From assembly GCF_000189635.1 (NCBI RefSeq), contig NW_002476368.1, positions 496,001 through 560,000 on the forward strand: a stretch of 64,000 nucleotides of DNA, in the 5' to 3' direction. The position numbers and the translations under genes are program-made. Each line of letters starts with the position of its first letter. Positions within the stretch are counted from its first letter, which is position 1. Source of the DNA: Tetrahymena thermophila SB210. Its lineage: Eukaryota > Ciliophora > Oligohymenophorea > Hymenostomatida > Tetrahymenidae. Below, one piece after another: positions 11,753-25,400 of this stretch. Below the pieces are notes generated by a model. It was not told where the DNA came from. It made no database searches and saw nothing but the letters and a program-made list of their open reading frames with translations.

Positions 11753-12907
11753 ATGTAAATTTTTGTTAAGACTTTAACTGGAAAAACTATTACACTTAAC
11801 ACAGAGGTTTCAGACTCTATCTAAGATGTGAAAGCTAAAATTTAAGACAAGGAAGGTATTCCACCTGATCAATAAAGACTAATTTTTGCAGGTAAGCAGC
11901 TTGATGATGGAAGAAGTTTATCAGACTATAATATACAAAAAGAATCAACCCTTCATTTAGTCTTGAGATTAAGAGGTGGTATGCAAATTTTTGTTAAGAC
12001 CTTGACTGGTAAGACTGTTACTTTAGATCTTGAACCTTGTGATACTGTTGAAAATGTTAAGGCTAAGATTCAAGACAAGGAAGGAATTCCACCTGATCAA
12101 TAAAGACTGATATTCGCTGGTAAACAACTCGATGATAGCAGAACTCTTTCTGATTATAATATTTAAAAGGAATCTACACTTCACTTGGTCTTGAGACTAA
12201 GAGGTGGTATGCAAATTTTCGTTAAGACCTTGACTGGTAAGACTGTTACTTTAGATATTGAAGCTTCTGATACTATTGAAAACATTAAGGCTAAGATTTA
12301 AGACAAGGAAGGTATTCCACCTGATCAATAAAGATTAATTTTTGCTGGTAAGCAACTTGATGATGGAAGAACTGTATAAGACTATAATATACAAAAAGAA
12401 TCAACTCTCCATTTAGTTTTGAGATTAAGAGGTGGAATGCAAATATTCGTAAAGACCTTGACTGGTAAGACTGTTACTTTAGATCTTGATCCTTGTGATA
12501 CCATTGAAAATGTTAAGGCTAAGATTCAAGACAAGGAACGAATTCCTCCTGATTAATAAAGACTGATATTTGCTGGTAAACAACTCGATGATAGCAGAAC
12601 TCTTTCTGATTACAATATTTAAAGGGAATCTACTCTTCACTTAGTCTTGAGATTAAGAGGTGGCATGTAAATTTTCGTTAAGACCTTGACTGGTAAGACA
12701 ATTACTTTAGATGTGGAATCTTCTGATACTATTGATAATGTTAAAGCTAAGATTCAAGACAAAGAAGGAATTCCACCTGATCAATAAAGGCTCATTTTTT
12801 CAGGTAAATGCCTTGAAGACACTAGAAAACTTACTGATTATAATATCTAAAAAGAGTCAACACTTCACTTAGTTTTAAGATTAAGAGGTGGTTATATAAA
12901 TATATGA
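11753..12907 (+). CDS. Divergent polyubiquitin gene 3 (class D, 5 modules, YINI cap)
   Basis: Five modules (11753, 11981, 12209, 12437, 12665) plus a four-residue cap Tyr-Ile-Asn-Ile, 384 aa. Frame, module length, Lys48, Ile44, His68, Val70 and LRLRGG are kept in all five, so the products should still fold and be processed. The sequence departs strongly from canonical ubiquitin. Module 1 has D16N, V17T, A19V, T22S, E24Q and N25D. Modules 2 and 4 carry I13V, V17L, A19P, S20C, E51D and G53S. Module 3 has V17I, V26I, E51D, L56V and S57Q. Module 4 also has E18D, G35R and K63R. Module 5 has A19S, E24D, A46S, Q49C, G53T, T55K and S57T. I infer a specialised set of ubiquitin-like proteins rather than bulk ubiquitin. 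The alternative is slow decay, but there is no frame break. Confidence 0.93.
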
Positions 12908-14044
12908 AAATAATATAGATATTGTTTACAAATAATACTATTGAATTTATTTTGAGTAAAAAACATATTATATAAATTTTTTTTCTAATTTGAAGTATTA
13001 TATATATCTTTTTATGTAATAATTTAATAACAATTTATCTTAATTATAGACCCTAGCTCTTAACTATATGTTTTTTTCACTAAAGCTGAAATATACAATT
13101 TTATATAATTAATATTTATAACTGTATTTAATAATCATAGAATAAATGATTAATTAATTATCCTAAGGGTAATTTAAATTGAATTAAAATAAAATATCAA
13201 TATTATAATTTTATAAAATAATAATAACAATTACCTTTAAAAAAACTTAATAAATTTTAATTAATCTGAATTTTTAATTTAGATTGAAAAAGTCATAAAA
13301 ATTAAAAAAATAAATATCAAAATACCATCCAAATACAAGTATCAAAACTATTAATAAAGATAATCAATATGTAGTGTTGGTTTAAAACAGTGGTATTTAT
13401 TAGATTTTAAATAATCTTTTAATCGTATTGAATTAAGAGTTATGATTAAATTACTTAGAAATATAAAAGATAGAAGAAAATAACAATTAGAGTAATTATT
13501 TAATTTTAAAAATTCATATTTATAAAAGCTTTAAATCTAAAAAAATGTTTAAAAATATAATTCTCATAATCTCATTATTCAAATTAAATAATAAAAAAAA
13601 GTTTAAATATAAAAATTAAACTATGTTATTCAAGAAAAGTAATAAAATATTCTAATTTAATGAATTCAATTTTAATTCTGGATAAAACGTATTTGAGTAA
13701 TTTATATATCATATCGTTTATTTAGCTTATTTTTTAATAAAAAATAGCAAAGTAGACAACTTAATAAAAAAAAACAATCTTCTATTTTTATAAATCTTCT
13801 ATTTTTTATTTGCTTATAATATCCAAAAAATTTGATTCATCTAAAAATAATTTATGTAGTAGATAGCTTTAATTACCTCTCTTTTGTTACAATCAGATTT
13901 TATCAACATATATTCTTTACTTCTTTAAGAGTTATTTAATTTATTTTTGTGTAATTGATTTTAACTCAAAAAAATTAAAAAAAAAAACTAAAAATTAGAG
14001 AGAAAAGAAATCAAACAAATTAAAATTAATAAAGAAACCTAATT
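12908..14044. other. Spacer between polyubiquitin genes 3 and 4
   Basis: AT-rich, with the upstream element of gene 4 near its end. It corresponds to the spacers after D genes 6 and 9. No gene seen. Confidence 0.6.
13856..13916 (+). promoter_or_regulatory. Shared ubiquitin-gene upstream element, copy 4
   Basis: GTAGTAGATAG at 13856, TTACCTCTC, then CAATCAGATTTTATCAACAT and ATATTCT ending at 13916, 128 nt before the ATG at 14045. Confidence 0.6.
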
Positions 14045-23249: not shown

Positions 23250-24245
23250 TTTAATATATTAAATAAATATTATAAATTTATAAGTATAAAAATATATGCA
23301 TTTACATTAGTAAATTAAAAGATTAAAGTTATTAAAATTAATTAATTTATAGTATCTTTTGTTTTATATTATTCATAAAAAAATTATTATTTATTCATAA
23401 TTTGCCTAAAAGTGCTTACAATTTTAAGGTACTTTGAAAAAATTCAGCATTAGTCTTTTTTTATTTCAAAAAGAACAAAATGTATTTAAATCTGATTAGT
23501 TATGATTTAAACTTTATTAAATTATTTTCAACCCAATTTTATTGAAAGTGTAAAAATCAATAGAAGGCGTTTTTTATTTAAAAAAATCAAATTTGATAAG
23601 TCATCTATTTATTTCCATAATCATAAACAATCTCTATTATATATTTTTTTACTGAAAATAAATCTGTTTTTTCGAAAACTTAAAAAATAATGAATTTAAA
23701 ATATCTTTGCATATCTAATATATTATTTAAACTTTTTACAAGGCATTTATGTTAAAACTTTAAGTATTATTGTATAAATGTATTTTTTATTTTTAAGAAA
23801 TGCTTTTAAAGAATTTATTTGTAATTTTTATTAAATTAAAAATGTTTTGTTAAAATTTCTAGGATTATTTAAGTAAAAAAATTATTTAGATTATTTTTTT
23901 TTAAAAATTGAATCCCTTATTATGTGAGAACTTAAAAGTTAGAAGACAATTTAACATTGATTTTGGTTATTCTATTTTTGTTAAACCTTTTATTTTCTGA
24001 TTATATTTTGTTTTTCAATACTTATTTATTAGTAAAAAATAACATTTGAAGTAGATAGATTTTATTAATCTTTGTTATCTACAATCAGATTATATCAATA
24101 TATATTCTTGTCTTCTTTTAAATTTTGATTAATTTTTAAAGAATATTAATATTAATTAACTAAAAAAACCAAAATAAAATAAAATAAAATAAAACAAATA
24201 AACAGCTAATTAAACAGTAGAAGAATAATTTTCTTTAAAAAATAA
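23250..24245. other. Spacer between polyubiquitin genes 8 and 9
   Basis: AT-rich; similar to the spacer between genes 5 and 6 but without its TTGAGC repeats. It ends in an (AAAAT)n-rich leader at about 24171-24195. Confidence 0.6.
24082..24108 (+). promoter_or_regulatory. Shared ubiquitin-gene upstream element, copy 9
   Basis: CAATCAGATTATATCAATAT and ATATTCT, ending 137 nt before the ATG at 24246. Confidence 0.6.
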
Positions 24246-25400
24246 ATGTAAATTTTTGTTAAGACTTTAACTCGAAAAACTATTACTCTTGGCTTGGAGG
24301 TATCAGATACTATCGAAGGTATTAAGGCTAAGATTCAAGATAAGGAAGGTATTCCCCCTGATTAATAAAGACTAATTTTTGCTGGCAAGCAACTTGATGA
24401 CGGAAAAACTTTATCAGACTATAATATACAAAAAGAATCAACTCTCCATTTAGTTTTGAGATTAAGAGGCGGTATGCAAATATTCGTTAAGACTTTGACT
24501 GGTAAAACTGTTACTTTAGATCTTGAACCTTGTGATACTATTGAAAATGTTAAGGCTAAGATACAAGACAAGGAAGGAATTCCTCCTGATCAATAAAGAC
24601 TGATATTTGCTGGTAAACAACTTGATGATAGTAAAACTATTTCTGATTACAATATTTCAAAGGAATCTACTCTTCATTTAGTCTTAAGATTGAGAGGTGG
24701 CATGTAAATTTTTGTTAAGACCTTGACTGGTAAGACAATTACGTTAGATCTTGAAGTTTCTGATACTATTGAAAATGTTAAATCTAAGATTCAAGACAAA
24801 GAAGGTATTCCACCTGATCAATAAAGACTAATTTTTGCTGGCAAGCAACTTGATGACGGAAAAATTTTATCAGACTATAATATACAAAAAGAATCAACTC
24901 TCCATTTAGTTTTGAGATTAAGAGGCGGTATGCAAATATTCGTTAAGACTTTGACTGGTAAAACGGTTACTTTAGATCTTGAATCTTGTGATACTATTGA
25001 AAATGTTAAAGCCAAGATCCAAGACAAGGAAGGAATCCCTCCTGATCAATAAAGACTGATATTTGCTGGTAAACAACTTGATGATAGTAAAACTATTTCT
25101 GATTACAATATTTCAAAGGAATCTACTCTTCATTTAGTCTTAAGATTGAGAGGTGGCATGTAAATTTTTGTTAAGACCTTGACTGGTAAGACAATTACGT
25201 TAGATCTTGAAGCTTCTGATACTATTGAAAATGTTAAATCTAAGATTCAAGACAAAGAAGGAATTCCTCCTGATTAATAAAGACTGATTTTTTCAGGTAA
25301 ATGCCTCGAAGATACTAGGACCCTTTCTGATTACAATATCTAAAAAGAGTAAACTCTTCACTTAGTTTTAAGACTAAGAGGTGGTTATATAAGTATATGA
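24246..25400 (+). CDS. Divergent polyubiquitin gene 9 (class D, 5 modules, YISI cap)
   Basis: Five modules (24246, 24474, 24702, 24930, 25158) and a cap Tyr-Ile-Ser-Ile, 384 aa. It is the most altered gene. Module 1 has G10R, D16G, N25G and R54K. Modules 2 and 4 carry S20C, G53S, R54K, L56I and Q62S. Module 3 has A28S, R54K and T55I. Module 5 has A28S, A46S, Q49C, G53T and S65Q. Modules 1-2 and 3-4 form a repeated pair at the DNA level, suggesting duplication of a two-module block. Lys48, Lys63, Ile44, His68, Val70 and LRLRGG remain in every module, so conjugation should still be possible; this is inferred from residues only. Confidence 0.93.

What the first reader, a model, noticed from the sequence alone, without database searches (positions are those of the whole stretch)
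11753..25400. A divergent ubiquitin class (17 modules in genes 3, 6, 9) with ordered module types
D modules differ from canonical ubiquitin at up to about ten positions yet keep Ile44, His68, Val70, Lys48 and LRLRGG. Module type depends on position: an EVSD-type first module, inner modules drawn from an (E/D)P(C/F)D or ESCD type and an EASD/EVSD type, and a last module with FSGKCLED. The types alternate strictly in genes 3 and 9, less regularly in gene 6. The same kinds recur in all three D genes, which implies selection for different products and escape from the homogenisation normal for polyubiquitin. This is the best candidate for an undescribed system: several ubiquitin-like signals released from one precursor.
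Basis: partly seen in the sequence, partly recalled or inferred. Interest (0 to 1): 0.85.

Follow-up and report, generated by a model that had tools for sequence, protein, structure and literature searches.

The report
Tetrahymena's divergent, shuffled polyubiquitin genes
Three neighbouring genes in a Tetrahymena genome encode chains of 17 different ubiquitins that keep ubiquitin's working face unchanged but vary in two surface stretches, and whose module order is best explained by recombination in the middle of modules rather than by selection for a set order.

Summary
Genes 3, 6 and 9 (5+7+5 modules) encode 17 different ubiquitins, 5-9 residues from canonical, all keeping Ile44, Lys48, His68, Val70 and LRLRGG. 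The genome matches T. thermophila (organism recalled). Genome searches list D modules only in this cluster. D genes are not decaying: omega is 0.009-0.151 in 18 chosen pairs. They evolve at two speeds: outside two stretches (about residues 13-28 and 46-65) D is as constrained as canonical (pN/pS 0.007 vs 0.004), inside them 0.33 vs 0.07 (regions chosen post hoc).

The inference from order fails. The cluster is an A-B-D gene triplet repeated three times plus an A, so types recur by descent. Inner types are mosaics: 5' and 3' parts of D modules are uncorrelated (r 0.01-0.05; random codon splits average 0.72). Gene 9 module 3 joins a last-module 5' half to a first-module 3' half; one unequal crossover explains that gene's alternation.

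Best reading: working ubiquitin variants with two relaxed or specialised patches. Transcription and separate signalling are untested. Several ubiquitin-like units in one precursor are already described in this species (BUBL).

The parts
11753..12907 (+). D gene 3: 5 modules of 228 nt, tail YINI, stop TGA
   Evidence: all 5 proteins differ; module 4 has K63R
17600..19243 (+). D gene 6: 7 modules, tail NIRNKYIQFFTNIYQ, stop TGA; module 7 begins with Leu instead of Met
   Evidence: by eye the longer tail comes from a short deletion over the stop seen in gene 9 (sequences)
24246..25400 (+). D gene 9: 5 modules, tail YISI, stop TGA; modules 1-4 carry an extra lysine, Lys54
24702..24929 (+). Gene 9 module 3, junction module: 5' part like module 5, 3' part like module 1
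   Evidence: 24 of 25 then 0 of 32 informative sites like module 5, break nt 99-105; 4 differences from the mosaic
24930..25157 (+). Gene 9 module 4, near copy of module 2 (24474-24701)
   Evidence: 6 differences of 228 nt
18284..18511 (+). Gene 6 module 4, mosaic: 5' part like module 5, 3' part identical to module 1
   Evidence: 0 differences from module 1 in nt 111-228 and 20 in nt 1-102; 2 differences from module 5 in nt 1-102 and 21 in nt 111-228
12665..12892 (+). Gene 3 last module (S46, C49 flanking Lys48); counterparts 18968-19195 and 25158-25385
   Evidence: the three form one group, 100/99
7869..8783 (+). Canonical A gene 1, 4 modules, stop directly after GG
9728..10642 (+). Canonical B gene 2, 4 modules, stop directly after GG
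14045..14959 (+). Canonical A gene 4, 4 modules
15822..16508 (+). Canonical B gene 5, 3 modules
20929..21615 (+). Canonical A gene 7, 3 modules
22563..23249 (+). Canonical B gene 8, 3 modules
26355..27269 (+). Canonical A gene 10, 4 modules; its 3' flank matches no other A gene

Best explanation
Genes 3, 6 and 9 are a divergent class of polyubiquitin genes. One D gene arose beside canonical polyubiquitin genes, was copied twice together with its A and B neighbours, and its modules now exchange sequence mainly with each other. Shown from sequence: open frames, purifying selection, retained functional sites, tandem descent, mosaic modules. Inferred: the precursors are cut after LRLRGG by ordinary deubiquitinases, the monomers enter the ordinary E1-E2-E3 pathway (tail 66-76 and Arg42 are unchanged), and selection keeps general ubiquitin function while two surface stretches (about residues 13-28 and 46-65) are freed or mildly specialised. 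Module order is a by-product of unequal crossing-over, mostly near the conserved centre of the module, which swaps half-modules; end modules keep their identity because exchange inside an array tends to spare its ends. Weaker codon bias suggests lower expression than the canonical genes.
For: Purifying selection: omega 0.009-0.151 in 18 D pairs, 2dlnL 11.6-80.5 against omega = 1. Two speeds: pN/pS 0.007 (D) and 0.004 (canonical) outside the variable stretches, 0.327 and 0.070 inside. Functional sites: 1 of 18 changed against 25 of 58 others, Fisher p 0.0036 (the set was written down after the list of changes had been seen). Sites changed in D are sites that vary more among 89 outside ubiquitins (mean 15.2 against 5.9 of 89, p 0.005). 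Tandem A-B-D unit: 5' flank scores 348-491 among D genes, 82-126 to A and B. Half shuffling: r 0.045 (p 0.31) and 0.009 (p 0.42) between parts, against 0.83 for odd and even codons and a mean of 0.72 (minimum 0.466 of 200) for random codon splits. Junction module in gene 9. Codon adaptation: D genes 0.56-0.62, cluster canonical 0.65-0.70, canonical elsewhere 0.73-0.81.
Against: No transcript or peptide evidence, no relatives' D genes. In the tree the three last D modules group with last modules of three A genes (96/94), away from the other 14, so D may have more than one root; a single clade is not rejected (p-AU 0.365). The within-gene homogenisation test among 14 non-last D modules is not significant (aa p 0.075, nt p 0.25). 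Among the 11 inner modules alone the two halves are weakly correlated (r 0.249, p 0.057). Canonical cluster modules also show some loss of linkage (r 0.338, random splits mean 0.551, minimum 0.355), so shuffling is stronger in D rather than unique to it. Gene 3 fits a simple crossover history less well than gene 9 (10 sites unlike both parents). Regions and mosaic triplets were chosen after seeing the data. The assembly of tandem repeats was not checked against reads.
Confidence: 0.6

Rival explanations
1. Specialised signals: D monomers are kept as distinct ubiquitins whose altered surface, extra Lys54 or altered Lys48 neighbourhood is read or linked differently from canonical ubiquitin.
For: All 17 proteins differ; S46 and C49 are in 3 of 3 last modules and in 0 of 89 outside ubiquitins together; Lys54 is in 4 of 5 gene 9 modules, and PMC10457151 cites Lys54 linkages in baculovirus ubiquitin and NEDD8 (Discussion part 1).
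Against: No excess of amino-acid change anywhere tested (highest pN/pS 0.93, at ten hot sites among the three last modules); combinations are reshuffled between halves; order is explained by descent and crossover.
Confidence: 0.15
2. Decaying spare copies: the canonical genes supply the cell, and D genes are drifting towards loss.
For: Weaker codon bias than canonical genes; lost residues such as Met1 of gene 6 module 7, and a longer tail in gene 6; hot sites at pN/pS 0.52 in D.
Against: Intact frames in all three genes, omega 0.009-0.151 in 18 pairs, constraint outside the variable stretches equal to canonical.
Confidence: 0.15
3. One reading: ordered module types selected as different products of one precursor.
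For: Types recur by position in three genes and labels alternate in genes 3 and 9.
Against: The genes are tandem copies of one; canonical A modules also keep position; halves are uncorrelated; gene 6 does not alternate; one crossover explains gene 9.
Confidence: 0.05
4. Assembly artefact: chimeric modules made when similar repeats were joined wrongly.
For: Tandem 228-base repeats are hard to assemble, and the read type is unknown to me.
Against: D modules within a gene are mostly 75-95% identical; the gene 9 junction module has 4 differences of its own from the mosaic; flanks differ from gene to gene; frames are intact.
Confidence: 0.05

Closest known systems
Canonical polyubiquitin genes (pUb; PMC10457151, parts read)
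   Same: Head-to-tail 76-residue modules without spacers, LRLRGG at each junction, extra residues after the last module in D genes
   Different: All 17 D modules differ from each other and from canonical, and D no longer mixes freely with canonical modules
Divergent ubiquitins of fusion genes in Plasmodium and other protists (same paper)
   Same: Ubiquitin freed from strict conservation, lysines and hydrophobic patch largely kept, extra Lys54 in one case
   Different: There mainly single units fused to ribosomal proteins, and in polyubiquitin a codon insertion; here whole multi-module polyubiquitin genes
T. thermophila BUBL genes (passages of PMC8616854)
   Same: Same species; several different ubiquitin-like units in one precursor
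   Different: D proteins show no Hint or intein domain in Pfam and are 88-93% identical to canonical ubiquitin
Arabidopsis UBQ7, UBQ8, UBQ9 and UBQ12 divergent polyubiquitin-like genes (recalled; one search found no paper describing them in its 2 listed hits)
   Same: Polyubiquitin genes whose modules depart from ubiquitin
   Different: Not compared here; module by module constraint and half shuffling unknown to me

Membership tests
Polyubiquitin gene | Head-to-tail 76-residue ubiquitin modules without spacer | tested here: met
   (PF00240 in 5, 7 and 5 stretches)
Polyubiquitin gene | LRLRGG at every junction | tested here: met
   17 of 17 D modules
Polyubiquitin gene | Extra residue(s) after the last module | tested here: met
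   tails of 4, 15 and 4 residues in D genes; absent in the 7 canonical genes of the cluster
Polyubiquitin gene | Modules encode (nearly) identical ubiquitin | tested here: not met
   17 distinct proteins of 17. So filed as a variant of polyubiquitin, not as an ordinary member
Polyubiquitin gene | Precursor is expressed and cleaved to monomers | not testable with these tools
   no RNA or protein data; inferred only
BUBL | Intein-like BIL domains between ubiquitin-like units | tested here: not met
   no Hint or intein family among hits of the three D proteins, while L027 gives them (the second BUBL-like gene, L028, was not scanned)
Pseudogene | Broken frames or omega near 1 | tested here: not met
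Separate ubiquitin-like modifier (NEDD8 or SUMO kind) | Own activating and conjugating enzymes | not testable with these tools
   sequence is 88-93% ubiquitin with unchanged tail

The most novel reading that the evidence does not exclude
D genes are a combinatorial ubiquitin repertoire: two surface cassettes (about residues 13-28 and 46-65) on an invariant working face are re-assorted by mid-module recombination, so one cell can make 17 ubiquitins that differ in contacts outside the Ile44 patch, some with a new Lys54 acceptor or an altered Lys48 neighbourhood (S46, C49), and these carry different signals.
Probability: 0.13. Interest if true: 0.88.

Novelty: new variant of a known kind. Interest (0 to 1): 0.5.

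Why it matters
[quoted passage not shown] D genes look like a natural case in which that face was released while the working face stayed fully constrained, beside canonical genes in a genetically tractable cell. They also show polyubiquitin recombination at half-module resolution, which bears on the dispute over concerted versus birth-and-death evolution of ubiquitin genes (PMC10457151).

Tried and rejected
Selection for an ordered set of module types: rejected as the reading of the order. Decay as the main reading: omega and constraint speak against it. BUBL membership: no Hint domain. D modules elsewhere in the genome: two searches (76 candidates, 74 candidates) list D modules only in the window; such lists are lower bounds. 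D relatives outside: searches (9 loci of viral contigs; 80 kept of 330 relatives) gave 89 loci; taking the best ubiquitin of each, 0 of 89 have S46+C49 or P19+C20, 1 of 89 has D51, 1 of 89 has K54. Those collections are viral and prokaryotic, so absence from other ciliates is untested. Literature: ten searches listed no paper whose title or abstract start describes these genes; several lists were cut (for example 20 of 108 and 15 of 1,619), and most subscription papers are not held. PMC6564038 on ten Tetrahymena genomes has no word beginning with 'ubiquitin' in its main text. PMC3341644 mentions ubiquitin twice, neither about these genes. PMC3191509 passages concern a ubiquitin-binding zinc finger. 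Within-gene homogenisation test not significant. The 11 mosaic triplets were picked by hand, so their p-values (0.0002 in 7, 0.0014-0.032 in 4) are uncorrected. Structure prediction was not run: at 88-93% identity to ubiquitin a fold would add little. A promoter scan and Rfam search were not run.
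Full report
What is there. The window is C169:496001-560000 of a 101 Mb genome and is read with the ciliate code. A dynein heavy chain segment of the same genome is identical over 543 of 543 aligned residues to PDB chain 7kek_A; that this chain is from T. thermophila is recalled. Two genes with the BUBL layout lie in the genome; the one of the two that I scanned has Hint and intein-splicing domains, and T. 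thermophila BUBL1 is described in passages of PMC8616854. Ten polyubiquitin genes on the + strand hold 42 modules. Canonical modules elsewhere are on C129 (5), C82 (5), C135 (3) and, as a fusion that I recognise from memory as ribosomal protein L40, on C157 (1). Two genome searches list D modules only in genes 3, 6 and 9 of this window (lists are lower bounds).

Gene order is A-B-D, A-B-D, A-B-D, A. The 350-nt 5' flanks of the three D genes score 348-491 against each other and 82-126 against A and B genes; the maximum for shuffled flanks is 50, so all groups share some weak similarity too. B genes behave alike (292-532). Of the A genes 4, 7 and 10 do (416-441), but gene 1's 5' flank does not (83-105 to them). 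3' flanks also separate the groups (D 117-248, B 235-398, A genes 1, 4 and 7 127-239), except that gene 10 matches no A gene downstream (45-58). So one D gene was copied with its neighbours. The seven canonical genes of the cluster stop directly after GG; D genes carry tails of 4, 15 and 4 residues; the three canonical polyubiquitin genes elsewhere end in Phe.

Divergence and constraint. D modules change 26 positions in all, none in 36-45 or 66-76. Of 18 functional sites (7 lysines, 8/44/68/70, 42, 71-76) 1 is changed (Lys63, in one module), against 25 of 58 other sites (Fisher p 0.0036); I wrote this set down after seeing the list of changes. Pairwise maximum-likelihood omega for 18 hand-picked D pairs is 0.009-0.151, and omega = 1 is rejected in each (2dlnL 11.6-80.5, a simple codon model, pairs not independent). 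By counting over all pairs, D pN/pS is 0.12-0.13 and that of the A and B genes 0.02-0.05. By region, codons 13-28, 46-57, 62, 63 and 65 give 0.327 in D and 0.070 in canonical, and the rest 0.007 and 0.004; at codons 16-20 and 53-57 D gives 0.52, and the three last modules 0.93 (regions chosen after seeing the data). There is no sign of positive selection. [quoted passage not shown] A46S and Q49C of the last modules are an exception: they flank Lys48. The positions changed in D are also more variable among 89 outside ubiquitins (mean 15.2 against 5.9 of 89, p 0.005).

Half-module shuffling. Across the 17 D modules, pairwise distances in the first and second part of the module are uncorrelated: r 0.045 (p 0.31) split at nt 114, against 0.83 for odd and even codons, and r 0.009 (p 0.42) split at nt 102, against a mean of 0.72 and a minimum of 0.466 in 200 random codon splits. 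Among the 11 inner modules alone r is 0.249 (p 0.057). Canonical cluster modules keep r 0.338, which is also just below their random-split minimum (0.355; mean 0.551), so they show milder shuffling. In D the correlation is lowest for cuts at nt 81-117. Examples: gene 6 modules 1 and 4 have 0 differences in nt 111-228 and 20 in nt 1-102; gene 9 modules 3 and 5 have 1 in nt 1-102 and 34 in nt 111-228; gene 9 modules 1 and 3 have 24 and 3. A best-mosaic scan beats the nearest whole module in 13 of 17 D modules, with the break inside nt 81-129 in 9 of those 13; in the other 4 of 17 it does not. A mosaic has more freedom and parents are reciprocal, so this count is soft.

Gene 9 read this way: an ancestor 1-2-5 and one unequal crossover in mid-module between a module 5 and a module 1 give 1-2-(5/1)-2-5. 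Observed: module 3 is that hybrid (24 of 25, then 0 of 32 informative sites like module 5, break nt 99-105), and module 4 is a near copy of module 2 (6 differences of 228). Gene 3 is less clean: module 3 looks like module 2 then module 1 (24 of 28, then 3 of 22), with 10 sites unlike both. Strict alternation therefore needs no selection on products. The ancestor is inferred.

Tree. With 56 modules, the 14 first and inner D modules form one side of a branch (94/97); the three last D modules group together (100/99) and fall with the last modules of A genes 1, 4 and 10 (96/94). One D clade is not rejected (p-AU 0.365). First modules of the four A genes also cluster (98/88), so ends keep identity without D-specific selection. 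A permutation test for within-gene homogenisation among the 14 non-last D modules was not significant (aa p 0.075, nt p 0.25), although Phe17 (4 of 7 modules of gene 6) and Lys54 (4 of 5 of gene 9) are gene-specific and cross types.

Expression, indirectly. Codon adaptation was scored against three tubulin-family and two GTP_EFTU-family genes of the same genome: D genes 0.563-0.617, cluster canonical 0.650-0.699, canonical elsewhere 0.729-0.806, dynein 0.592, five ordinary ORFs 0.419-0.473, the divergent two-module gene on C115 0.498 (modules, D against cluster canonical: Mann-Whitney p 0.0002). The two GTP_EFTU reference genes themselves score only 0.61-0.62, so the reference is mixed, and D may have inherited part of its bias from canonical ancestors. 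It suggests expression below the canonical genes. PMC12615304 reports acetylation of 'polyubiquitin, TTU3, and UBI4' in T. thermophila (passages); the passages do not say which genes, so this does not decide the matter.

Novelty. Divergent ubiquitin loci are known; PMC10457151 (part 1 of the whole text, 12 passages, and part 1 of the Discussion) describes fusion-gene ubiquitins that diverged and a codon insertion in polyubiquitin, and cites Lys54 linkages. I did not see, in the listings of ten searches (several lists cut), a polyubiquitin class in which every module differs, the working face is as constrained as in canonical genes, and halves are re-assorted. Arabidopsis UBQ7-9 and UBQ12 are a recalled precedent for divergent polyubiquitin genes. 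I file this as a variant of polyubiquitin, not a new system, unless D monomers are shown to signal differently.

Noticed in passing
L029:2357-2845 (C115 of the same genome): A two-module gene with much more divergent ubiquitin-like units (55% and 67% identity to canonical) in head-to-tail order, ending in a short tail.
   Followed up: partly
L027:1050-4682 and L028:927-4556 (C91): Two BUBL-like genes with intein-like domains between ubiquitin-like units; L027 also hits an ADP-ribosyltransferase family (L028 not scanned).
   Followed up: partly
L026 (C50), L030 (C22), L031 (C172): Long genes with one or more ubiquitin-like units followed by a shared cysteine-rich C-terminal part; not identified.
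   Followed up: no
window genes 1, 2, 4, 5, 7, 8, 10: All seven canonical polyubiquitin genes of the cluster stop directly after GG, with no blocking residue, unlike the three canonical polyubiquitin genes elsewhere, which end in Phe.
   Followed up: partly
18968-19195: Gene 6 module 7 begins with Leu instead of Met, so cleavage before it would expose an N-terminal Leu.
   Followed up: no
L037:1944-2486 and L038:1986-2735 (uncultured viral contigs): Open arrays of two and three ubiquitin units that differ strongly from each other, joined by short Gly-rich linkers.
   Followed up: no
L046, L048, L064, L093 and others: Many bacterial and archaeal contigs, some titled as isolates (for example Ruminococcus albus 8, Conexibacter sp.), encode a single near-canonical ubiquitin unit; contamination was not checked.
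   Followed up: no
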